From Candidatus Chromulinivoraceae bacterium (GTDB taxonomy: Bacteria; Patescibacteriota; Saccharimonadia; Saccharimonadales; Saccharimonadaceae), in the NCBI GenBank assembly GCA_035478595.1, contig DATIJL010000011.1, forward strand, positions 1 to 64,000: DNA of 64,000 nucleotides. The letters are read 5' to 3'. The position numbers and the translations under genes were made by a program. The notes beneath the pieces are model-generated. The model saw nothing but the letters and a program-made list of their open reading frames with translations. It was not told the DNA's origin and did not search any database. How positions within the stretch are numbered: position 1 is the stretch's first letter; each line of letters opens with the position of its first letter. Positions 36,565-46,485 of the stretch are shown piece after piece.

Positions 36565-37101
36565 CTAAAGTAGATTTTGGACTCGTGCTTCAAGCAGTAT
36601 AGCTCGACATTGCAAGCACCTAAGATCTCTTAACAACTCCTCGTAAGTGTAGCTCTTGGCATCGCTTGGCAAGGTAACATCCGACTTTAGGTTGACAATA
36701 TACCCATGCAGCTTTTGATTTGAAAAGGCACTATCTACGTACAGTGGTGATTTTGTTACCAGCATTATATCTATCGATACGGATTCATCTAAGGAAAGCT
36801 CACGCCTTAGCGTGATCTCAGCAGCCACGGTTGGTTCGAGCGAATCAACCCTACCACCAACAAAGTCGAGTGTTTTTTCATCGGCGCCTGGACGAAACTG
36901 TTCGCCACCCAAAATAAATTGGCCCTCTTTTACGACAATAATGATAACCGAGTCTGAGCGATCTACTGTCACATATTCCAGCGTGCGACCATCGTTGCTT
37001 TTTACCGCATCTTTATAAATAGTAATCCACTTAGACTGAACTAGTGACTCTCTTCCAATTCTTTCTTTTGGTTGTGAACCGATAGAACTGCTTGTACTCA
37101 T
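36565..37101 (-). CDS. Nudix-fold protein with degenerate Nudix box
   Basis: 178 aa. The fold start (LVQSKWITIYKDAV, IIVVKEGQFILGGEQFRPG) matches ADP-ribose pyrophosphatase-type Nudix proteins, but the box reads FVGGRVDSLEPTVAAEITLRRELSLDES: three residues are inserted between E and RREL, and the EExG end is LDES (shown here as separate pieces GGRVDSLE and RRELSLDES). Metal binding and catalysis may be lost. TATTAT is seven bases before ATG. Confidence 0.7.
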   Translation of the reverse strand: MSTSSSIGSQPKERIGRESLVQSKWITIYKDAVKSNDGRTLEYVTVDRSDSVIIIVVKEGQFILGGEQFRPGADEKTLDFVGGRVDSLEPTVAAEITLRRELSLDESVSIDIMLVTKSPLYVDSAFSNQKLHGYIVNLKSDVTLPSDAKSYTYEELLRDLRCLQCRAILLEARVQNLL

Positions 37102-37227
37102 ACCTTTAATAATAGCAGATGTGTACTAGGATTTACCTTTACCCTATAGTCTGCAAGCACTAAACTCACAACACCCCATAGGTTGACGACTCGTTTTTGT
37201 GAGTGTCGACGTTCTTAAGGATTTCTA

Positions 37228-37247
37228 GTAGATTATCCGTAATCTAC
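37228..37247 (-). terminator. Inverted repeat at the end of the lipoprotein-like gene
   Basis: GTAGATTA / TAATCTAC with a four-base loop, overlapping the stop codon. No T run, so termination is uncertain. Confidence 0.35.
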
Positions 37248-37846
37248 CAACTACTTCCGCTTCCATTCGTTGGATTAGAGCTATCACCACTCGAAGACGA
37301 CGAAGTTGTTGACGTAGACGGTGTCGGATTGGCGACTGGTTTTGCAACGGTAAAGTTAGAAGTCCCATTACCCGTTATTTGGTTATTGCTATCACTAGTG
37401 AATGTATAGAGAGGCATGCCATTATAGGTAAATTGCGTTTGTCCGTCATCGGCGCGCTTTATAGTCCCTATTCCAGCGGGAAGACCTGTCGTCGCACCGC
37501 TATCTTGGTAAGCCGGCCACAAAGAAATACATGAACCAGTACAATTACTCACTCCATTACTATCACCTCCATAAATATAAAGAGGATGCCCGTTAGAATC
37601 AGTCAGATATTGTCCAAGTTTTGAGTCTGTCTTGGTGGTTAAAATAGCATTATTGACCGGTGGTACGCTACCACTACTAGCAGTGGACTGAGACTGGCTT
37701 GAATTTCCATAGGGATTCGCATGATTCCTCATATAGAAATAATAGATGGCAAAATAGATAAGTCCACCTACAATAACGTAGAGCAGGATCCATTGCCATA
37801 ATGGTCGTTTACTATATCCTTTAGACTTCTGCGTATCACTTACCAT
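37244..37846 (-). CDS. Membrane-anchored COG4315-like repeat protein
   Basis: 200 aa: one N-terminal membrane helix (about 17-40), a Ser/Gln linker, then the two-repeat domain known from COG4315 lipoproteins (LGQYLTDSNGHPLYIYGGD with CTGSCISLWPAY, and FTYNGMPLYTFTSD), ending in a low-complexity Ser/Thr tail. Located outside the membrane; function unknown. The two cysteines flanking TGS can pair. AAAGG lies nine bases before ATG. Confidence 0.8.
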   Translation of the reverse strand: MVSDTQKSKGYSKRPLWQWILLYVIVGGLIYFAIYYFYMRNHANPYGNSSQSQSTASSGSVPPVNNAILTTKTDSKLGQYLTDSNGHPLYIYGGDSNGVSNCTGSCISLWPAYQDSGATTGLPAGIGTIKRADDGQTQFTYNGMPLYTFTSDSNNQITGNGTSNFTVAKPVANPTPSTSTTSSSSSGDSSNPTNGSGSSW

Positions 37847-38007
37847 TGCTTCACACCTTTCTCTTAACTATTACATGGAGCTTATGTTTACAGTATGCAA
37901 TCCTCAGTCCAACAATGCAATTTATTGTGGGATGGGCACCAGCCGTACATATCAACTGGTTTATCGAAAATATGAATTTTACATTAGTCCCATGGCATCA
38001 ATGATAT

Positions 38008-38043
38008 TATAGTGACGTGGCTGGCACACTCCGTGCCCTTTTT
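38008..38043 (+). promoter_or_regulatory. -10 box and leader terminator-like hairpin of the radical SAM gene
   Basis: TATAGT (38008-38013) would start transcription near 38020. Straight after comes GGCAC-ACTCC-GTGCC (38023-38037), then C and TTTTT, ahead of the GAGAGGA ribosome site. This is an attenuator-like arrangement, or simply a terminator for upstream transcripts. Confidence 0.5.
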
Positions 38044-38056
38044 GAGAGGATTCTCC

Positions 38057-39169
38057 ATGTTGGAGATGCCCGAAGCAAACCCGTTTCACCCCGACAAGCT
38101 TCTGCTCCACCGAGCAAAGGTCGCAGCGCTCGCCAACAGTACGATGATCGCCCCTCAGACAATTGAGGTCGATCTCACCGACGGCGCATGCAACCAAGGT
38201 TGTGTGTACTGCTGCTTCAGTTCGGGTGAAGGTAAGAAGATGGTGCGGATCGACCGCACTGCACTCTTGCAAGCGCTCCGAGAAGCCTACGCACTCGGTA
38301 CGCGAGCAGTGGAACTGGTGGGTGGTGGTGAACCTACCGCCCATCCGGAGATCGCCGGTATCATCAGCGACATCTTCGAGATCGGCGCTGGCGATATGGA
38401 GGTTGGTCTTATCACCAACGGTCTGCTCGCCGAGCGAATCCTTTCCGTCGCCCCGCGCATGCGTTTCGTGCGCATCAGTCTCGACACGGCACTTTCAGCA
38501 ACGTACCAGGTACTTCACAAGGTGCCCGCAAGACAGTTCGACAAGGTTCTCACGAACATCGGCAGACTCCGTGCGGAGATGCCCCAGATCACCAACGCGA
38601 GGCAGCTCGGGATTGGCTATCTGGTCGTGCCCCCGTACAACCACCAAGCCGAAGAGGTGATGGCGGGAGCCGAACTGGCTCATGAGCTCAACGTCGATTA
38701 CATCACGTATCGGCCGGTTGAGCTCACCGACGAGCAGCCTCAGAGCTACTGGCGAGAAGCACAACAAGCCATCAGGGCAGCTCGAAAGCACCTGCACGAG
38801 AGCGGCAGTTCCACGGTCGCATTCGGAGGTGTTGGAAACCGCTGGGACACACTTCGTCCCGGGGGTCACCCGACTGGCATCTGCGACGCGAAGCCGTTAG
38901 TCGCAGTGATCCAAGCGAACGGTGACATCGCACACTGCATCCTGTACAGGAATCAGCGTGCGATGCGGATCGGCAACATCCACGAGGGTCCGTTCACAGA
39001 CCAGTGGTTCAGCGAAGAACATCAGAGCGCCTGGCAATCCCGTCAGGTCGATGGCTGCCCAAACCCGTGTAAGCTCTACCGCTACAACGATGTGGTGCGC
39101 GAAGCAAGGACGAACGGCACCGGAGACGCTCCTCCGTACGGAGACGTGGCGCACCACCTGTTCGTCTAG
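38057..39169 (+). CDS. Radical SAM protein with SPASM-like C-terminus
   Basis: 370 aa. [4Fe-4S] motif CNQGCVYC (Cys45, Cys49, Cys52), SAM-binding VELVGGGEPTAHPE, then VGLITNG and VRISLDTA strands of the partial TIM barrel. The C-terminus has extra cysteines (GICDAKP, IAHCILY, DGCPNPCKLY), suggesting auxiliary cluster ligands as in RiPP-maturing enzymes. Start ATG 38057 is chosen for GAGAGGA six bases upstream rather than the longer frame from 38012. Codons end mostly in G or C, unlike neighbours: likely transferred. No precursor peptide is obvious; substrate unknown. Confidence 0.85.
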   Translation: MLEMPEANPFHPDKLLLHRAKVAALANSTMIAPQTIEVDLTDGACNQGCVYCCFSSGEGKKMVRIDRTALLQALREAYALGTRAVELVGGGEPTAHPEIAGIISDIFEIGAGDMEVGLITNGLLAERILSVAPRMRFVRISLDTALSATYQVLHKVPARQFDKVLTNIGRLRAEMPQITNARQLGIGYLVVPPYNHQAEEVMAGAELAHELNVDYITYRPVELTDEQPQSYWREAQQAIRAARKHLHESGSSTVAFGGVGNRWDTLRPGGHPTGICDAKPLVAVIQANGDIAHCILYRNQRAMRIGNIHEGPFTDQWFSEEHQSAWQSRQVDGCPNPCKLYRYNDVVREARTNGTGDAPPYGDVAHHLFV

Positions 39170-39217
39170 ATGAACGAAAGAACAGCCACACCCCAATACG
39201 TCTTTTGACGATTGGAT

Positions 39218-39247
39218 GCCGTCTGCTACTTAAGACTAGCAGACGGC
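39218..39247 (+). terminator. Hairpin after the radical SAM gene
   Basis: Perfect 10-bp stem GCCGTCTGCT / AGCAGACGGC with a 10-base loop and no T tract, similar in style to the hairpin at 1460-1484. Confidence 0.5.
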
Positions 39248-39311
39248 AACTTCAATGATTTTATAAGCACCTAATATTTAAGACGCCAGAACACGACGCA
39301 GCAAAGTTGAT

Positions 39312-40157
39312 CTAGTCGAGATTCTTTTTATTCTGTCGCGGTAAGTAATTTTTCCGACTGATCACCTTCTTACCCGTCTCGTATTCAAGTTGCTTGCGAG
39401 CATTACCAGCTACCGATCCTCCTCGTTGCGCAGCTTGTTTATTCTCAACCAGTCCTTGTGTGCCATCCGTCCTAGCTATTTCAGTTGTAGCTGCTTCACC
39501 TAACTGAGTAAGTAGAAGCTCCAGGTCATTCATGTGGTCGCGTAAGTTTTGCCGTTTAAGACCTTTTATCTTTTTGTATTCGCTCGGCGTAATACCAAAT
39601 GTCGCCTTCGATATTTCTGCAGTAAGTATGGCGTAGTCTTGTTGCAAATCCACACCACGCCTATCCCACTTATCGGTCAATTCCTGACGGATTGCTATAC
39701 ACGTACGCGTCTTTCAATCCATGCATCATCATAACCTTTAGCTCGATACAATGCTTTCATACGTTTCTGAGCTAACTCTGGGTCTTCGATTTCTTGAACA
39801 CGTTCATATCCCGTTCGGGCTAGCCAGCGTTTAAAAGGTTCTGCTTTCTTACTCGAAATGGATTGGACTAAACGAAAACCCCCTCTGTACTCCAAGATAA
39901 TAGCTTCTGCCTTCCACCAGGGGATCAAACGGCAACGCAAGGGGGGGTTCAATTTGAACTACCCCTTTTTCCACAGGTTCAAACAACTTTGATGATTCTT
40001 CGTCTCGATTGCGCATATTGCGAAGATACTGAGCGGGATCTGCTGAATCCGTAAGTACCGCCACAACATCGTTAATTACAAACCACCATTGGCCATCGTG
40101 CAGTTGTTTACGGATTTCTTTCTTTTGAAAAATTGCTAGCTTTAATTCTTCGCTCAT
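39312..40157 (-). pseudogene. BRO/DinD-like gene broken by single-base deletions
   Basis: Three frames in succession encode one BRO-family protein (phage antirepressor-like; BRO-N plus the DinD-like C-terminal region). Frame 1 from ATG 40157 covers IFQKKEIRKQLHDGQWWFVI to IEPPLALPFD; a middle frame covers FRLVQSISSKKAEPFKRWLA to KGYDDAWIERRVR; the last covers LTDKWDRRG to the stop at 39312 (TPSEYKKIKGLKRQNLRDHM). Adding one C near 39918, one C near 39862 and one G near 39704 restores a full reading. TATGAT lies six bases before the start. Decay or assembly error; neighbours are intact, which favours decay. Confidence 0.8.
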
Positions 40158-40251: not shown

Positions 40252-40375
40252 AAACAAAAAGAACTTCTTGATGAAGTTCTTTAAGTATAATGATTTTGGC
40301 TCCCTAAAACTGGATTCGAACCAAACACTTCTACCGCCTAAATATTAGGCTCGCTTCACTTTAGCGTACCCCTGT
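40252..40375 (-). other. Degenerate tRNA-like sequence with terminator (left repeat)
   Basis: On the minus strand: a T-arm-like TTTGG-TTCGAAT-CCAGT, then GGGAGCCA as tRNA 3' end, then the AAAGAACTT / AAGTTCTTT hairpin. Upstream the anticodon position is a simple GCCTAA-TAT-TTAGGC hairpin and no D-arm can be formed. Not a functional tRNA by eye. Confidence 0.5.
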
Positions 40376-40417
40376 AATTTGTCAAATTTTTGCATATATT
40401 TTATGTATGAAATGTGA

Positions 40418-40423
40418 TACAAT
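40418..40423 (+). promoter_or_regulatory. -10 box of the toxin-antitoxin operon
   Basis: TACAAT, seven bases, ATG 40431. Confidence 0.5.
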
Positions 40424-40430
40424 AAAAAGT

Positions 40431-40598
40431 ATGAGTAATAGCAAAGTTATTAGTGTAAATGAAAACAGCCCAGAGTTCCTGCTTGAATTGGAACGACGCA
40501 TTAAACTTGCTAAAAATCCTAAAAATCGTATACCACTAAGCATAGCCAAGAAAGATATTCTAAAAAAATATCAGGAGCTTGCTGGTGCAAAAGTATAG
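40431..40598 (+). CDS. Antitoxin partner of the ParE/RelE-like toxin
   Basis: 55-aa charged protein with Lys/Glu-rich helices (FLLELERRIKLAKNPKNR) directly upstream of, and overlapping by 14 bases, a ParE/RelE-like gene. No classical RHH or Phd motif is recognisable, so the antitoxin assignment rests on position and size. First gene inside the island, with its own leaderless-type promoter. Confidence 0.65.
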   Translation: MSNSKVISVNENSPEFLLELERRIKLAKNPKNRIPLSIAKKDILKKYQELAGAKV

Positions 40599-40932
40599 CG
40601 TCAATCTTACAGAAGATGCTGAGAACGATATTGCCGAGCTGATGGCATTTTATGAAGAGCTGGTGGATGCTAAATCGGCGGTGAAGTTTTTTGAAGAAGC
40701 GATGGAAACCGTAACGAACTTGGAAAACTTGCCACGAGCCAATGCCTTATTCAAAGACGATCCGGATGTGCGCAAAGTTCAGATGGAAAACCACAAAGTA
40801 GCGATTGTGTATCTTGTGGATGACGATCGCTTTGAGGTTATTGCTGTTCGTGCATATCACCAGATGCAAAACCCTACCAAGTACCAAGAATCGGTACGTG
40901 AACGTATACGCAAATTGCATGAGCAGTCGTAA
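40585..40932 (+). CDS. ParE/RelE-superfamily toxin
   Basis: 115 aa with the ParE/RelE fold order: YSVNLTEDAENDIAELMAFY, then FFEEAMETVTNLENLP, then VRKVQMENHKVAIVYLVDDD and FEVIAVRAYHQ. These toxins cut ribosome-bound mRNA or poison gyrase; which one cannot be told. GTG 40585 is preceded by AGGAG at seven bases. Tail HQMQNPTKYQESVRERIRK is basic. Confidence 0.8.
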   Translation: MQKYSVNLTEDAENDIAELMAFYEELVDAKSAVKFFEEAMETVTNLENLPRANALFKDDPDVRKVQMENHKVAIVYLVDDDRFEVIAVRAYHQMQNPTKYQESVRERIRKLHEQS

Positions 40933-40960
40933 CTAGTGATCTACAGGATATACTTTAGGC

Positions 40961-41602
40961 ATGGGGAAAATACTGGCAATTGGCGACATCCACACGAAGA
41001 TCTGGATTATTGAGAAAGTCGCTAAAGTCATTAACGATTACGATAAGGTTATTTTCTGCGGTGATTACGCAGATGACTTTAGCGCTAGTCCGCAAGATAC
41101 CCTAAACACCTGGAGAACTTTAAAAGATCTGCAGACTAAAAACCAAGACAAGGTCGAGCTAGTTACAGGCAATCACGACTACATATATGTCAAAGATACG
41201 CCTTCATTGCAATCAGGCTACAATCCTATCACACAAGTTTTAATCAATGCCCCAGAAAATAAAAATCTGAAAGTGTGGCTTGCTGCCCTGCCTGTTATTA
41301 TCGAAATTGATGGCGTTACCTATTCTCACGCCGGCATAGCCAATGAGTGGTCTGGCCTAAAAGATGCGACTGGCCTATGGAATGACATGAGCCCTATTTG
41401 GGCAAGACCCGGGGGCAGTATTACGTACAAGGATACGCCTCAAGTTTTTGGGCATACTCCTACCGATACTTGTTATGAGGTTAAAAGTGGAGTGTGGTGT
41501 ATAGATACGTTCTCTACAATGCCAGACGGTACCCCGTTTGGTGATGGATCAGTGCTGCAAATTATTGATGGCAAAAAATTCTCTAAGATATACCTGAAAT
41601 AA
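40961..41602 (+). CDS. Calcineurin-like metallophosphoesterase
   Basis: 213 aa with all di-metal motifs: GDIHTK, FCGDYADD, GNHDY, SHAG and FGHTPT. Small Ser/Thr phosphatase or nucleotide phosphodiesterase type. Its ATG lies six bases after TATACT, so it can be made separately from the toxin pair 29 bases upstream. Same strand and close spacing to the primase-helicase group suggests a shared function. Confidence 0.88.
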   Translation: MGKILAIGDIHTKIWIIEKVAKVINDYDKVIFCGDYADDFSASPQDTLNTWRTLKDLQTKNQDKVELVTGNHDYIYVKDTPSLQSGYNPITQVLINAPENKNLKVWLAALPVIIEIDGVTYSHAGIANEWSGLKDATGLWNDMSPIWARPGGSITYKDTPQVFGHTPTDTCYEVKSGVWCIDTFSTMPDGTPFGDGSVLQIIDGKKFSKIYLK

Positions 41603-41618
41603 CATGGAGGATTCGTTG

Positions 41619-41732
41619 ATGAATACCAAAGCAATCAACGTCGCAATTCCAGGTATCCAGCTTGAAAGCATATTGACGGCTGAGGATTTGGAAGAAGTAC
41701 ACGTTACAGAAAGTTGCAACCATGCAGCCTAG
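41619..41732 (+). CDS. 37-aa small protein coupled to the primase-helicase
   Basis: ATG 41619 with GGAGG eight bases upstream; stop at 41732, eleven bases inside the next gene. Acidic peptide (QLESILTAEDLEEVHV). The strong ribosome site and overlap suggest it is translated and couples or regulates expression of the primase-helicase, whose own start has no ribosome site. Confidence 0.6.
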   Translation: MNTKAINVAIPGIQLESILTAEDLEEVHVTESCNHAA

Positions 41733-43839
41733 CGATAAGATCAGACTTTATCGATCACTGTTCAGGGGACGTGACGACGTATTTGCGAAACGTAGCCCAA
41801 CAACTGGTGCGTATTTTCCTGAGCATACGCTTAACTGGGATGAGTTCAATGCTCACAAAGCCAATGGTGGCAGAATGGCAACATTCAAAAACAAGAAACC
41901 CACGCCATTAACCGATGAAATTATCCTGAAACATCTCACCGGCCAGATTACAGTCGGTATCTATCCCATTCTTCAAGACAACACTTCATATTTTCTGGCA
42001 GCTGATTTTGATAAAGAGAATTGGCTCAAAGACTGCCAGAATTATCGGGTGGAGATAGCCAAGCTTGGTTTGTCGGCATACATAGAACGGTCAAGGTCGG
42101 GTAATGGCGGTCACGTCTGGGTTTTCTTTGAAGATGCCTATCCCTGCCACAAAGCCAGAGCTATCGGACTCGAGGTAGTGCGTAAAATCTTAAAGCTGTC
42201 GGCCTTCGATAAAGAAGCCAGCTTTGATCGACTATTCCCCAATCAGGACGCCATTGTTAAGGATGGATTTGGTAATCTGATCGCGTTACCCTTTCAGGGT
42301 GAATCAGCCCGCGGCGGCAACACGGTGTTCATTAATCCCAGCACGGGCATTCCTTACGAAGACCAGTTTGAAATCCTAAAAACTGCCCAACGCTACTCAA
42401 TCAAGGAGCTTGATGCAGCCTATGATAAAGCGATTGGCGCAACGATTGATGATGTGACTGCACCTATCAAAAACAAAAGATTAAAGATTTCCGTTGGTCA
42501 AAATATCACGTTTAATAAAGCGCAGCTCAGCGGAGCACTGGTCGGTTACCTCAAAGAAGAACTTAATTTCCTAAACAGTGAATACCTCACCAAAAAGCGG
42601 TTTGGTGTATCACTGTATCAGGTGCAAAAATACTTCCGTTTGATCGATGAGTCTGATAAAACGGTGTCATTGCCTCGCGGTTTTCTCTCAAGGTTGCTCA
42701 AGTTTTTGTATGAAAATAATATTGAGTACAGCATTAGTTTTATCACGCCAAAGTTTGATAATCTCAAATTCAAAAGTCAAATCAAGCTGAACGAACAACA
42801 AGAACAGATAGTATCAGCTGCGATGATCGAAAAACAAGGCGTTATCGTCGCGCCTCCAGGCAGCGGCAAGACGATGATGGGTATGGAATTAATTGCTCGA
42901 CACAAAAAACCATCACTCGTACTTGTCCATCGTAAACAGATCCTTGATCAGTGGGTGGACCGGATCCAGCAATATCTAAATATTCCAAAGGCCCAAATCG
43001 GTCGTTACTCGAGTGCGAAAAAGTCTGCTGGCAAGGAAATTACTGTTGGACTGCTGCAAAGCTTTGCTCGCAGTAAAGATCTGAGCGAGCTACGTGACAA
43101 ATTCGGCACGATTATTGTCGATGAGTGTCATCATATTCCTGCCAAAACGTTCAGGGATGTTATCGCCAGCCTTAACCCCGAATTTCTGTATGGCTTAACA
43201 GCTACACCTAAAAGAAAGCACAATGACGAGCAGCTTATCTATGTTTATATTGGCGATATTATCGCGAATATGGCTGACTTTAAGGATATCAATCAACCCG
43301 CAACTAGCAAGAAGTTTGACGTTGTCATTCGAGAAACAGGCCTAGCTATCCCCTTTAACTGGAAAACTGATGCTTTTGATCTGGTGGCCAAGGTTATTAG
43401 CTACGACACGAAGCGAAATGAGCTCGTAATCAAAGACGCGCTTAAACAAGTTGCCCTAAAGCGTAAGGTGTTGGTGCTCAGCGAGCGCAAAGAACACCTG
43501 AAGATTTTAGAGCTATACCTCAAAGGTCAATGCGAAACGATGATCTTTACTGGTGACGACTCGGCAGCCAGTCGTACATCTAAGTTGGCGCAAATTGAGG
43601 CTGGACATTATCAAGTGTTATTGGCTACGGGCCAGATAATTGGTGAAGGTATGCATGTACCTAATATCCAGGCATTGATCTTCGCTTTCCCGTTCGCCCT
43701 TGAGGCCAAAACCACCCAATACGTCGGTCGGCTCATGCACAGTGATAGCCCAAAAGTATTAATCGACTACCACGACAAGCAGATTCCCTTTTTAGATCGG
43801 CAATTCAAACAGCGTAAACGGGTATATAACAAGCTTTAG
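41722..43839 (+). CDS. TOTE-type primase-polymerase fused to SF2 helicase
   Basis: 705 aa. Residues about 5-230 match the archaeo-eukaryotic primase domain of TOTE conflict systems: LFRGRDDVFA, LAADFDKENW (catalytic DxD), RSRSGNGGHVWVFF (His motif), LFPNQD and GFGNLIALPFQ. The zinc knuckle usually found between the first two segments is missing. Residues about 355-700 are a DEAD/DEAH helicase: Walker A APPGSGKT (about 376), DECHH (about 467), LTATPKRK, and a C-terminal RecA domain with GRLMHS. TOTE systems are thought to act against invading DNA. No nuclease domain is visible. Confidence 0.85.
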   Translation: MQPSDKIRLYRSLFRGRDDVFAKRSPTTGAYFPEHTLNWDEFNAHKANGGRMATFKNKKPTPLTDEIILKHLTGQITVGIYPILQDNTSYFLAADFDKENWLKDCQNYRVEIAKLGLSAYIERSRSGNGGHVWVFFEDAYPCHKARAIGLEVVRKILKLSAFDKEASFDRLFPNQDAIVKDGFGNLIALPFQGESARGGNTVFINPSTGIPYEDQFEILKTAQRYSIKELDAAYDKAIGATIDDVTAPIKNKRLKISVGQNITFNKAQLSGALVGYLKEELNFLNSEYLTKKRFGVSLYQVQKYFRLIDESDKTVSLPRGFLSRLLKFLYENNIEYSISFITPKFDNLKFKSQIKLNEQQEQIVSAAMIEKQGVIVAPPGSGKTMMGMELIARHKKPSLVLVHRKQILDQWVDRIQQYLNIPKAQIGRYSSAKKSAGKEITVGLLQSFARSKDLSELRDKFGTIIVDECHHIPAKTFRDVIASLNPEFLYGLTATPKRKHNDEQLIYVYIGDIIANMADFKDINQPATSKKFDVVIRETGLAIPFNWKTDAFDLVAKVISYDTKRNELVIKDALKQVALKRKVLVLSERKEHLKILELYLKGQCETMIFTGDDSAASRTSKLAQIEAGHYQVLLATGQIIGEGMHVPNIQALIFAFPFALEAKTTQYVGRLMHSDSPKVLIDYHDKQIPFLDRQFKQRKRVYNKL

Positions 43840-43857
43840 ATTCAAAGGAGTTAATAT

Positions 43858-44580
43858 ATGACCACACAAACTAACGGTTACCCCATAGAATTACTGCAAC
43901 TTAAGATTTCTCTACGCGATTCACGCCCACCTATCTGGCGGCGAATACACGTTCGAGCCGACTGCTCGTTTTGGGACTTGCATAGCATCATTCAGGATCT
44001 ATTCGGGTGGGAAGATTGTCACCTGCATGGTTTTGCCACAGCCTCAAAAATTAACGAGGATAGGTACATACTGGAAGTATTAGATATTGACCCCAGCTCG
44101 GAGATTGAGCATGCTGGCGCACCGTTGCCTCAAAAATTCCCATATCCACACAATTACTACTGTGATGAGCGTGCTGAGAAGTTAGGAGTATGGATAACGC
44201 CGGAACGCAAAAAAATGTACTATACCTATGACTTTGGTGATAGCTGGGTGCATGAAATAGTGCTGGAAAAGACGATAACCGTCGAAAGTATGGGGCTAGC
44301 CTTCTGCAAATATCTCGGCGGTAAACGTCAAGGTGTCGAAGAGGATAGCCGAGGTGAGTCTATCCTCGATTGTACTGCAATTATCAAGGCTGCTACTAGT
44401 CCAAGGGGCGAACATTGGAAGGCGATCGTTGGCTACTTTGGTAGCGAACCAAAGGCTAGGCAATATCTGGCCAAAGCAGAAAGACTCTCAAAATTGTCCG
44501 CTCCTGATGAAATTATCTTTTCTGATTCACTGAAGCGCTACAAGGACGATGATGCAACTGGTATGTTCGATCATTCATAG
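43858..44580 (+). CDS. Plasmid pRiA4b ORF-3-like protein
   Basis: 240 aa with the family core: LKISLRDSRPPIWRRIHV, FWDLHSIIQDLFGWEDCHLH and YTYDFGDSWVHEI. Function of the family is unknown; members are common on plasmids and mobile DNA. AAGGAG lies ten bases before ATG, and the gene follows the primase-helicase by 18 bases, so it is the last gene of the island operon. Confidence 0.9.
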   Translation: MTTQTNGYPIELLQLKISLRDSRPPIWRRIHVRADCSFWDLHSIIQDLFGWEDCHLHGFATASKINEDRYILEVLDIDPSSEIEHAGAPLPQKFPYPHNYYCDERAEKLGVWITPERKKMYYTYDFGDSWVHEIVLEKTITVESMGLAFCKYLGGKRQGVEEDSRGESILDCTAIIKAATSPRGEHWKAIVGYFGSEPKARQYLAKAERLSKLSAPDEIIFSDSLKRYKDDDATGMFDHS

Positions 44581-44783
44581 GTCCTCTACTCTTCGTTATG
44601 TAAAACCGGCCCATATTCTTTCTGTAAAAGCCCACCGTACGGTACCAGTTCGGGACTGTTTCTTTGCATTAACATCTTAGCATGAGTGTTTTTTATTGCC
44701 TCAAATGAGGGACTGGTCATGGAACCTGGTCACCTAATCTAGCTGCTTGGTCTGACTCTCACTAGTGGACATACTTCGCAACT
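44581..44783. other. Convergent intergenic stretch
   Basis: About 200 bases between the pRiA4b-like gene and the convergent unknown gene. Contains the 10-bp palindrome ACCGTACGGT near 44637-44646; no gene and no clear terminator seen. Confidence 0.4.
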
Positions 44784-45524
44784 CTAACGACGCTTCTTCG
44801 ACTCCTGAATTGAATCCTTATATGCCTGATCCTGCAAAGCGACTAGTTTTTTAGCGCTCATAAATAATCCCTTCTTAACACGTTGTGCAGCAAGATTAGC
44901 TTCACCTTCAGTACGGTATGCCTCATCTTCTGCGTGAATAAACTCAGCCTTTTCTTGTCGGGCTATACTCTTGCTAATATCACCAAGGCCGACCGCAACA
45001 CCAGGTATGGAGTTTGGCTCCACGTCATACGGCGACGAAACATCCATTGCTACTACTCGCGTAAGCTTTGGTCCAAATTTATCAACCAGCAGCTTCATAT
45101 CTTCAGGGAGGTTATCCACATCTACGTCAGTGACGTCATAGATAGCGTCCTCTGGTGCGTCGTCGGACCTGAACTTAAGCGTGCGGCGCTGCCATTCAGG
45201 AGGTATTGTTATATCTACGATCTTATCGTCAAATAAAATTCGACACGTTTTGTCTACCTTAGGTTCTTCCCACCAGCTTGGCGTATCACCTTTCTTGCGT
45301 GCGATCATAATAAGTTCACCACCAGCTTCTATGTACGATCGGGCCTTTGAAAAACCTTGCTCCTCGCCATCGGCATTAACAACGTCGGCTAGCTCTTGTA
45401 GCTCATCAAGAGAGTGTGGCGTTTCGCCACTCCTAAAGCGATCGCTCAGGGAATTGAGCAGTTCAGTTGAGGTAGGAGATTTTTCTTGCGTATTGTGTTG
45501 GGGGGATGTATGTTCGTGTTGCAT
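44784..45524 (-). CDS. Hypothetical protein, 246 aa
   Basis: Unrecognised soluble acidic protein: disordered N-terminus rich in His/Gln/Ser/Thr, a central region with WWEEPKVDKTCRILFDD and PPEWQRRTLKF, and a basic helical end (AAQRVKKGLFMSAKKL). ATG 45524 starts one base after the preceding stop and has AAAGG in that gene's end, so it is coupled to the 242-aa gene. A longer frame from 45620 is rejected. Confidence 0.6.
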   Translation of the reverse strand: MQHEHTSPQHNTQEKSPTSTELLNSLSDRFRSGETPHSLDELQELADVVNADGEEQGFSKARSYIEAGGELIMIARKKGDTPSWWEEPKVDKTCRILFDDKIVDITIPPEWQRRTLKFRSDDAPEDAIYDVTDVDVDNLPEDMKLLVDKFGPKLTRVVAMDVSSPYDVEPNSIPGVAVGLGDISKSIARQEKAEFIHAEDEAYRTEGEANLAAQRVKKGLFMSAKKLVALQDQAYKDSIQESKKRR

Positions 45525-45525
45525 A

Positions 45526-46254
45526 CTATGCCTTTCTTCGCCTAATGCCGATCTTTCCAAGAGCACGCTTAACGAACGTGTCTTCGGGATCTCCCTTGAA
45601 CTCTTTACGGGTAATGTCACCCTCTAATCTAGCATCTTCAAGTGTTATTGGATCTCCGGAAAGCTTTTCGGGGGTAACTAGCAGATTTGTTAAAGATTCT
45701 GGAATGTTAGGATTAAATTCCCCACTTTCCGTATGAATAATTGCAGGAACACCAGTCTCGTGCTGAACGTAGCTAAGAGTCCTCTCGCTTTTTCTCAGAT
45801 TACCATCAGCCTTATCCGTCAGGCTAGATACAACCAAGATACCCTTTGCACCCTGGGTTCGTAGAAATTCCTCATGGCTATCTGACGGAAGGCCAAGTCT
45901 ATCCCTAGTGCCAATAATCCTAACACGATCCTCATCGCTAAAGGTGCGTTCCCAGGCTCGGACTGTGTAACGTGCAGTTCCTTGGGGCAGTTCCGTCTCA
46001 ACACCGTAGAAGTGCGTCACGTCATACAACATGTCATCGTCAAAAGGAGATTCAATAATCTGCGTCCCAGGCTCGACAGTTGCGCCACGTTCGAGTAATA
46101 ATTGCATGATATTAACCACTTCTGGATTGCTCTCTACGCCGTCCTCTGTTTCGAGAGAATGCAGTTTCGCTCGCTCAAGCTCATGCGAGGGAACTCGATC
46201 TGAGCCAGGATTATGATTTGGCTGTTCGGTTGTAGGCAGGAAGTCTCGTTTCAT
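45526..46254 (-). CDS. Hypothetical protein, 242 aa
   Basis: Unrecognised soluble protein with an alpha-beta central part (GAKGILVVSSLTD, TGVPAIIHTESGEF), which hints at a Rossmann-like fold, and a basic C-terminus (GKIGIRRRKA). Forms a two-gene minus-strand unit with 44784 inside the island, just before its right repeat. Confidence 0.6.
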   Translation of the reverse strand: MKRDFLPTTEQPNHNPGSDRVPSHELERAKLHSLETEDGVESNPEVVNIMQLLLERGATVEPGTQIIESPFDDDMLYDVTHFYGVETELPQGTARYTVRAWERTFSDEDRVRIIGTRDRLGLPSDSHEEFLRTQGAKGILVVSSLTDKADGNLRKSERTLSYVQHETGVPAIIHTESGEFNPNIPESLTNLLVTPEKLSGDPITLEDARLEGDITRKEFKGDPEDTFVKRALGKIGIRRRKA

Positions 46255-46365
46255 TGGTGTTTGTTCTTTATTTTTTTAACTTTCTACGTAAAACATTAGC
46301 ATAATATTGTAGATAAGTCAATTAAATTATACCGGCTCATCCATTCCATCCTCAATATAATTCGG

Positions 46366-46400
46366 AAACAAAAAGAACTTCTTGATGAAGCTCTTTAAGC
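46366..46400 (-). terminator. Terminator of tRNA-Asn (right repeat)
   Basis: AAAGAGCTTC / GAAGTTCTTT hairpin with a T run on the minus strand, directly after tRNA-Asn. Near-identical to 40252-40285. Confidence 0.65.
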
Positions 46401-46410
46401 ATAAGTTCTA

Positions 46411-46485
46411 TGGCTCCGGCAGCTGGGCTCGAACCAGCGACCTAATCGTTAACAGCGATCCGCTCTACCACTGAGCTATGCCGGA
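46411..46485 (-). tRNA. tRNA-Asn (GTT)
   Basis: Minus strand: acceptor TCCGGCA / TGCCGGA, discriminator G and encoded CCA; anticodon arm GATCG-CTGTTAA-CGATT with GTT; T-arm with TTCGAGC. Full cloverleaf. Confidence 0.93.

What the first reader, a model, noticed from the sequence alone, without database searches (positions are those of the whole stretch)
40252..46417. 6-kb conflict island between a tRNA remnant and tRNA-Asn
A 34-base sequence recurs with one mismatch at 40252-40285 and 46366-46399, each followed by a tRNA 3' end (TGGCTCC). The segment between holds a ParE-like toxin pair, metallophosphatase, 37-aa ORF, TOTE-type primase-helicase, pRiA4b-like protein and two unknowns. The first genes are tightly spaced on one strand. 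tRNA-end duplication suggests site-specific integration, and the content suggests a defence or element-conflict role, unusual in such a small genome.
Basis: partly seen in the sequence, partly recalled or inferred. Interest (0 to 1): 0.75.

Follow-up and report, generated by a model that had tools for sequence, protein, structure and literature searches.

The report
Toxin-helicase cassette at a tRNA gene
A six-kilobase block of toxin-antitoxin and primase-helicase genes sits between a bacterium's tRNA-Asn gene and a displaced copy of that gene's end, and related bacteria carry blocks of the same kind, singly or in rows, as small recombinase-less gene cassettes inserted behind tRNA genes.

Summary
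The 34-base repeat is a transcription terminator, but each copy follows a tRNA-Asn 3' end, and a whole-genome search finds just these two places. Upstream of the displaced tRNA end lies a conserved ~60-base 'arm' (sigma70-like promoter plus covarying hairpin). A model of arm plus tRNA 3' end matches 49 of 392 genomes of the order at E<=1e-5, 15 of them more than once; 11 of the 49 had supplied model sequences. In loci I fetched, arms often close small cassettes behind tRNA-Asn, -Met or -Gln, many with toxin-antitoxin genes. The window's arm+antitoxin+ParE (83-84% DNA identity) and arm+antitoxin+ParE+phosphatase (76%) recur there; its primase-helicase recurs at 70-73% protein identity, once directly behind the same ParE. 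No recombinase was found in the island; several related loci carry serine recombinases beyond the arm. Best reading: a composite, recombinase-less cassette island at tRNA-Asn, probably mobilised by a serine recombinase from elsewhere. A 'TOTE defence system' is not supported: TPR, OB and TBP partners are missing from the island. Related known kinds: Dehalococcoides ssrA islands, CIMEs, SCC.

The parts
46411..46485 (-). tRNA-Asn(GTT), intact; target gene, tRNA-side attachment site
46366..46399 (-). terminator behind tRNA-Asn (repeat copy 2)
45526..46254 (-). orphan gene B, 242 aa, no family; found only in this genome among 148 genomes of the order (E<=1e-4)
44784..45524 (-). orphan gene A, 246 aa, no family; found only in this genome among 148 genomes of the order (E<=1e-4)
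43858..44580 (+). PRiA4_ORF3-like protein (PF07929), 240 aa
41722..43839 (+). AEP primase + SF2 (XPB/UvsW-like) helicase fusion, 705 aa; keeps nearly all columns conserved in 12 homologues
41619..41732 (+). 37-codon ORF overlapping the start of the primase-helicase; nature unknown
40961..41602 (+). calcineurin-like phosphoesterase, 213 aa; 76% aa identity to the one in a G428 tRNA-Asn cassette
40579..40932 (+). ParE toxin (PF05016)
40431..40598 (+). antitoxin partner (by position; start from the alignment with relatives)
40297..40386 (-). arm + displaced tRNA-Asn 3' end (distal attachment site); models R1/R2
40358..40385 (-). sigma70-like promoter in the arm (TTGACA-16-TAAAGT, 10/12), reading outward
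40252..40285 (-). terminator behind the displaced tRNA end (repeat copy 1)

Best explanation
40286-46410 is a composite, recombinase-less mobile cassette island integrated at the 3' end of tRNA-Asn in what is most likely a Saccharibacteria genome. It ends on the tRNA side in the intact tRNA and on the far side in a ~60-base arm fused to a displaced tRNA 3' end. Shown: the two ends, no recognisable recombinase inside, the same arm in many related genomes and, in loci that were fetched, as the end of small cassettes lined up behind tRNA-Asn/Met/Gln, and the window's own modules recurring as such cassettes. Inferred: a large serine recombinase of the kind found in related loci recombines the tRNA T-arm region of the gene with the matching region of a circular cassette, so that both the tRNA and its terminator are restored; new cassettes enter next to the tRNA and push older ones outward; this island grew by fusion of an antitoxin-ParE-phosphatase cassette with a primase-helicase cassette plus later cargo. 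The ParE module probably acts as an addiction module that keeps the island. The primase-helicase is probably the partner of such a toxin in element maintenance (copying the excised circle) or in defence; the data do not decide between these.
For: Ends. Arm family: R1 in 13 of 198 family genomes at E<=0.01, six of which built the model; R2 in 49 of 392 order genomes at E<=1e-5, 11 of which supplied model sequences. Arrays: L274, L275, L276, L277, L279, L280, L167/L278. Module homology: 40283-40963 is 83% identical to G685, where arm-antitoxin-ParE is followed directly by a primase-helicase of 67% DNA identity; 40309-41602 is 76% identical to a G428 cassette behind tRNA-Asn; 40296-40918 is 84% identical to a ParDE-only 0.8-kb cassette behind tRNA-Asn in G720. 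L168: intron-bearing tRNA-Asn - primase-helicase (73%) - Fic - arm+tRNA-Asn 3' end, 3.5 kb. G004 keeps a decayed relative: tRNA-Asn 3' copy, arm, Fic (79% to that of L168), tail of the primase-helicase. Serine recombinases: beyond the arms in G032, G147, G201, L167 and of another subfamily in G428; G070 has tRNA-Asn, recombinase and, 38 kb on, arm+tRNA end. Recombinases >=45% identical to the G032 one in 7 of 13 arm genomes and 17 of 185 others (p=0.00017; hand count from a cut listing, kinship not corrected for). Patescibacterial primase-helicases: 17 tRNAs (at 10 of 23 loci) in 81 kb within 2 kb, 4 in 135 kb beyond (p=0.0001 if tRNAs are taken as independent).
Against: No recombinase in or beside this island. 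The genome's only hit, at C15, is just 30% identical to the G032 recombinase and has no tRNA in the 12 kb fetched. The displaced tRNA end is decayed and was missed by the ungapped test, so it may no longer recombine. No excised circle and no empty site in a congener was seen. Six of the 13 arm genomes lack the close recombinase in the listing. Not all arm loci are tidy: in L275 and L282 7-10 kb of other genes lie between two arms, and no tRNA lies in the stretches L274 and L282. Most of the 49 genomes were not inspected. Outside Patescibacteria the primase-helicase is not closer to tRNAs than background (7 in 229 kb against 11 in 444 kb). Genomes are mostly draft assemblies.
Confidence: 0.8

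Rival explanations
1. Decayed remnant (CIME) of one larger serine-recombinase element that lost its recombinase, not a free cassette.
For: G070 shows a ~40-kb stretch with recombinase between tRNA-Asn and the arm. The tRNA copy in the window is degraded. Two orphan genes and PRiA4 have no counterpart in the 20 arm and cassette loci searched, and the orphans none in 147 other genomes.
Against: The window's modules recur as complete 0.8-3.5-kb cassettes between tRNA or arm borders in other genera, which a single decaying element does not predict.
Confidence: 0.3
2. Anti-phage defence island: toxin plus primase-helicase is one defence system, and the tRNA site is only its landing place.
For: A Fic gene lies within 330 bp of the primase-helicase in 21 of 90 loci from several phyla, an AbiEii gene in 3 of 90. 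The primase domain belongs to AEP-TOTE and resembles a CRISPR-associated primase-polymerase family.
Against: PADLOC finds only generic PrimPol/helicase matches to it. TPR, OB and TBP partners are absent from the island. The toxin next to the gene changes from locus to locus. Other cassettes carry P-type ATPase (named by eye) or dihydroorotase/dihydroorotate-dehydrogenase-like genes.
Confidence: 0.35
3. The primase-helicase is the replication enzyme of the excised cassette, as Cch/primase genes are thought to be in SCC elements (recalled), and the toxin is an addiction module.
For: Recurrent position beside tRNA 3' ends: in 12 of 14 non-patescibacterial loci with a tRNA the 3' end faces the gene. 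Islands of 3.5-5.8 kb bracketed by tRNA 3' ends, without a recombinase that I could recognise by eye, in L226, L206, L108, L168.
Against: Most cassettes in the loci fetched lack it. No origin or circle was shown.
Confidence: 0.35
4. Chance: a terminator shared by tRNA genes, and unrelated genes in between.
For: The repeat is a terminator, and similar ones occur elsewhere in relatives such as G023 and G004.
Against: Only two copies in the genome, both behind tRNA-Asn ends; arm homology across genera; recurring modules.
Confidence: 0.02

Closest known systems
Dehalococcoides ssrA-specific genomic islands (PMC3146451; passages read)
   Same: Serine recombinase (DsiB), insertion in the T-loop of a tRNA-like gene, tandem islands each bounded by a copy of the gene's 3' end, 15 islands without integration module.
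   Different: Target is tmRNA, not tRNA-Asn/Met/Gln. The passages report a 15-bp conserved motif upstream of the repeat, not a ~60-base promoter-hairpin arm. Islands carry reductive dehalogenases, not small TA cassettes.
CIME, cis-mobilizable element (PMC5704250; passages read)
   Same: Keeps both attachment sites, has no integration or transfer genes, stands in tandem with other elements.
   Different: Defined as decay products of ICEs/IMEs; here minimal cassettes recur as units in several genera.
SCC / pseudo-SCC of staphylococci (recalled; mentioned in PMC3146451)
   Same: Serine recombinases, gene 3' end as target, tandem and recombinase-less cassettes.
   Different: rlmH target; no tRNA end, no arm (recalled).
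Mobile/sedentary integrons (recalled)
   Same: Rows of small cassettes, many of them TA modules, each closed by a structured site; site next to the anchor takes new cassettes (inferred here).
   Different: Tyrosine integrase and attI/attC in integrons; serine recombinases and tRNA ends here.
TOTE conflict systems (name explained in PMC12458937; passages read)
   Same: AEP-TOTE primase domain.
   Different: TPR, OB and TBP components missing from the island.

Membership tests
CIME | no recombinase or transfer gene inside | tested here: met
   8 island ORFs against four libraries, and tblastn with four serine recombinases
CIME | both attachment sites kept | tested here: met
   by sequence: tRNA-Asn and arm + displaced, decayed tRNA 3' end; function not tested
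CIME | derived from an ICE/IME by loss | tested here: inconclusive
   a large element with the same ends exists in G070, but minimal cassettes recur too
TOTE conflict system | AEP-TOTE domain | tested here: met
   E=3.6e-72
TOTE conflict system | TPR, OB and TBP partner genes | tested here: not met
   no match among the 8 island ORFs in Pfam or NCBIfam; the rest of the genome was not searched for them
Integron | IntI tyrosine integrase next to attI | tested here: not met
   no integrase in the island; recombinases in L167 and L283 are serine-type
Integron | attC recombined as folded single strand | not testable with these tools
   the arm hairpin covaries, but that does not show how it is used
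Dehalococcoides-type t(m)RNA serine-recombinase islands | displaced copies of the 3' end of the target RNA gene at the borders | tested here: met
   (in the window only a decayed copy)
Dehalococcoides-type t(m)RNA serine-recombinase islands | serine recombinase as integrase | tested here: inconclusive
   present in several related loci, enriched in arm genomes, absent from this island
Dehalococcoides-type t(m)RNA serine-recombinase islands | ssrA as target | tested here: not met
   targets seen are tRNA-Asn, -Met, -Gln
ParDE toxin-antitoxin | ParE-type toxin with small antitoxin gene upstream | tested here: met
   PF05016 above cut-off; antitoxin by position and conservation only
SCC | insertion at rlmH by ccr genes | tested here: not met
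   tRNA-Asn target, no recombinase

The most novel reading that the evidence does not exclude
Saccharibacteria carry an integron-like cassette system built on tRNA genes. Every cassette ends in a small RNA gene of its own (sigma70-like promoter, covarying hairpin, then the T-arm, CCA end and terminator borrowed from the target tRNA). A serine recombinase swaps the 3' halves of the tRNA gene and of this RNA gene, so both stay whole at each insertion, and the structured RNA or its folded DNA takes part in cassette recognition or control.
Probability: 0.3. Interest if true: 0.88.

Novelty: new variant of a known kind. Interest (0 to 1): 0.68.

Why it matters
Saccharibacteria have about 1-Mb genomes and live on other bacteria (recalled); how they take up and keep foreign genes is poorly known. 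A tRNA-anchored array of small addiction and primase-helicase cassettes would give them an integron-like store of genes, would explain part of the variable content behind tRNA genes in this group, and gives a searchable mark (model R2) that points to cassette borders.

Tried and rejected
Chance or plain terminator repeat: rejected. Group I intron remnant as source of the 40.3-kb tRNA piece: introns do sit in tRNA-Asn of relatives, but the arm aligns with other arms; the R1 hit on the G027 intron-exon junction was weak (E=0.11). Complete but unusual tRNA at 40286-40386: rejected, ARAGORN finds no tRNA in any of 13 arm loci. RNAalifold's first structure for six arms had no covariation; the short hairpin named afterwards does. 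That hairpin was chosen by eye on the same sequences and A4 was fitted to it, so these counts lean its way; and one of the five measures, pairs with a change on both sides, was not above the shuffles (141 and 287 of 500 shuffles reached it). Island as a composition outlier: not so. Homologues of the two orphan genes: none in 147 other genomes of the order at E<=1e-4. Viral relatives of the primase-helicase: one weak match in viral contigs; in phages 3263 records but none over 80% of the query in one place; in plasmids 418 records, all under 60% identity, three neighbourhoods viewed. Papers; none of the titles or abstract starts listed described such arrays in Saccharibacteria, but one search listed only 12 of 248 papers, only 15 of 50, and most subscription papers are not held. 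Passages were also read in two listed papers that turned out not to bear on it. R2 hits at E>1e-4 with spans over 110 bases (mostly genus g2) look like ordinary tRNAs and are outside the count of 49. No structure was predicted.
Full report
What is in the window. Between 40252 and 46417 lie a displaced tRNA-Asn 3' end with its terminator, five plus-strand genes (antitoxin by position, ParE, phosphoesterase, AEP primase-helicase, PRiA4_ORF3), a 37-codon ORF, two minus-strand orphan genes, and the 3' end of the intact tRNA-Asn (46411-46485) with a terminator that differs from the first in one of 34 bases. The repeat folds as a terminator, and the genome search finds only these two places.

Which organism. 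Contig names are hidden. The order sample contains G743, whose arm locus is identical to the record DAHXLD010000005.1, titled Candidatus Saccharibacteria bacterium; G000 is in the same order, so the window is most likely from Saccharibacteria.

The far end is an attachment site. The displaced tRNA end aligns with tRNA-Asn from the T-arm to CCA and on through the terminator, though it is decayed: an ungapped 26-base test misses it (16/26 against 18/26 on the opposite strand). Upstream of it is a ~60-base stretch homologous to the stretch in front of a tRNA-Asn 3' copy in another genus, G004, where a Fic gene and the last 30 codons of the same primase-helicase follow. A covariance model of six such sites (R1) finds 13 of 198 family genomes at E<=0.01, one copy each; six of them supplied the model. 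In G032, G068, G166 and G203 the copy lies 1.9-3.2 kb behind tRNA-Asn with other cargo: ArsR/P-type ATPase, a ClpB-like ATPase, membrane proteins (names of these by eye). The tRNA part differs: Asn-like in most, Met in G428 and L167, another one, perhaps Gln, in G211 and G106.

Arrays. With 17 sites the model (R2) was run over 392 genomes of the order: 75 match at E<=0.001; 49 at E<=1e-5, 15 of these with more than one copy, up to five; 11 of the 49 had supplied sequences to the model (hand-copied list). Ten loci were fetched. G685: arm - DUF6155 protein, primase-helicase, ParE - arm - unknown ORF, PemK pair - arm, with no tRNA in the 14 kb. G720: tRNA-Asn - ParE - arm, 0.8 kb, with 7 kb of other genes before the next arm; and on another contig tRNA-Met - CopG-type antitoxin module - arm - SWIM protein - MazE/PIN - arm. 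G742: tRNA-Met - primase-helicase fragment - PIN/RHH - arm - antitoxin-like ORF - arm - Fic - arm. L167 (13 kb of it identical to L278 of G718): tRNA-Met - primase-helicase and HicA - arm - PIN - arm - two ORFs - serine recombinase. G747: tRNA-Gln - HAD-like ORF - arm - dihydroorotase-like and dihydroorotate dehydrogenase genes - arm. G644 (L282) has two arms 10 kb apart and no tRNA in the stretch (ORFs without a call named by eye).

The window's modules are cassettes elsewhere. DNA of 40283-40963 (tRNA end, arm, antitoxin, ParE) is 83% identical to G685, where a primase-helicase (67% DNA identity to the window's) follows ParE directly. 40309-41602 (with the phosphoesterase) is 76% identical to a G428 cassette between tRNA-Asn and an arm. 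40296-40918 is 84% identical to the ParDE-only cassette of G720. The unequal identities, and the phosphoesterase standing between ParE and the primase-helicase only in the window, speak for module exchange (inference).

The recombinase. None was found in the island. In G032, G147, G201 and L167 a ~425-aa serine recombinase lies beyond the distal arm; G166 has it in the same region with further cargo between, G203 and G026 have pieces (those of G203 of another subfamily), and G428 has one of another subfamily at the arm. G070 has tRNA-Asn, this recombinase, and 38 kb on an arm with tRNA-Asn end. Across the family sample, recombinases of at least 45% identity occur in 7 of 13 arm genomes and 17 of 185 others (hand count from the cut listing; Fisher p=0.00017; kinship not corrected for). 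Of the 30 best recombinase loci fetched (L137-L166, about 1.5 kb of flank), 11 have a tRNA within about 1.3 kb whose 3' end faces the recombinase (counted by eye); 4 of 23 of them match R1 at E<=1, one of these only at E=0.18.

The arm. 48 of 50 distinct arms have a TANNNT box within a 14-base range, and in 40 a hexamer 15-18 bases upstream matches TTGACA in at least four positions; with the first 45 bases of each arm shuffled 500 times the means are 14.9 and 2.2, the highest 26 and 8 (the shuffles do not keep relatedness). The window's own is TTGACA-16-TAAAGT; the promoter scan of the whole region found 13 sites where shuffles give 13.3, so a single match means little by itself. Behind it a hairpin covaries: in A3 84.7% of cells paired and covariation 0.513 against at most 0.166 when slid; in A4 88.4% and 0.379 against at most 0.121; the number of pairs with a change on both sides is not above the shuffles. 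So the arm looks like a promoter and the 5' end of a structured RNA that runs into the tRNA 3' half and stops at the tRNA terminator. No transcript was seen.

The primase-helicase. It has the invariant columns of the 12 homologues aligned, itself included, and departs from the common residue in 3 of those conserved in 11 of 12. The nearest solved structures by sequence are XPB/RAD25 and UvsW helicases, and for the primase part entries named TPR_REGION domain-containing protein. The AEP-TOTE domain is in 1 of 198 family genomes and in 14 of 379 phylum genomes over the cut-off, this one included. Around 90 homologous loci (one known duplicate, L193, removed), Fic lies within 330 bp in 21 and AbiEii in 3. 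In 23 patescibacterial loci (L208 and L167 placed there by likeness) tRNAs are dense within 2 kb (17 at 10 loci, in 81 kb) and sparse beyond (4 in 135 kb); in 67 other loci they are not (7 in 229 kb against 11 in 444 kb), but in 12 of the 14 that have a tRNA its 3' end faces the gene. Direct copies of the tRNA 3' end beyond the gene occur in L226 (26/26, 5.3 kb), L206 (20/26, 5.8 kb), L108 (21/26, 3.7 kb), L167 and L104 (24/26), against 15-17/26 on the opposite strand; L171 and L227 (19/26) are weak; in L106, L114 and L202 the best copy is the end of another tRNA or tRNA-like sequence; the other tested tRNAs, the window's included, have none by this test. By eye, no integrase was recognised among the ORFs listed for L226, L206, L108 and L227.

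How it works, as far as can be said. Shown: borders, arms, recurrence of modules, no recognisable recombinase. Inferred: recombination in the T-arm region by a serine recombinase acting in trans or from a neighbouring element; entry next to the tRNA; ParE as addiction module; the primase-helicase in replication of the circle or in defence.

Novelty. Tandem islands at the T-loop of tmRNA with a serine recombinase and integrase-less members are known from Dehalococcoides, and CIMEs are a named class. New here, as far as I saw, are the tRNA targets in Saccharibacteria, the very small cassettes with many TA modules, and the promoter-hairpin arm. I saw no paper on this in the listings, which cover open-licence papers only and were partly cut.

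Noticed in passing
L168 4496-4730(-), L051 2891-3213(+), L057 8999-9275(-), L058 9416-9648(-): Group I introns (Rfam RF00028) in the anticodon loop region of tRNA-Asn in four related genomes: the tRNA gene that takes cassettes is also an intron target.
   Followed up: partly
window 39312-40157(-): DinD/Bro-N-like gene (PADLOC PDC-S13) in two open pieces just beyond the displaced tRNA end; relatives lie near tRNA-Asn in G008 and beside the primase-helicase in G456.
   Followed up: partly
window 37000-39999: A radical SAM/SPASM gene (38012-39169) goes with a rise of GC to 0.50-0.53 against about 0.43 around it, so the variable region may go on beyond the displaced tRNA end.
   Followed up: no
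L137-L166: Serine recombinases of this family often lie near the 3' ends of tRNA genes (Asn, Gln, Gly, Glu, Arg, Val; 11 of 30 loci), which I recall as an unusual target for serine recombinases.
   Followed up: partly
L104 4837-6301: The stretch between two arms in G428 holds tRNA-Trp, tRNA-Cys, a tRNA-His-like sequence seen by eye, and a PemK module.
   Followed up: no
L280 8114-10773: A cassette between two arms behind tRNA-Gln carries dihydroorotase-like and dihydroorotate dehydrogenase genes, so cargo is not only toxins.
   Followed up: no
L226 5928-11219: Deltaproteobacterial 5.3-kb island with the primase-helicase between tRNA-Gly and a perfect 26-base copy of its 3' end, no integrase recognised by eye.
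   Followed up: partly
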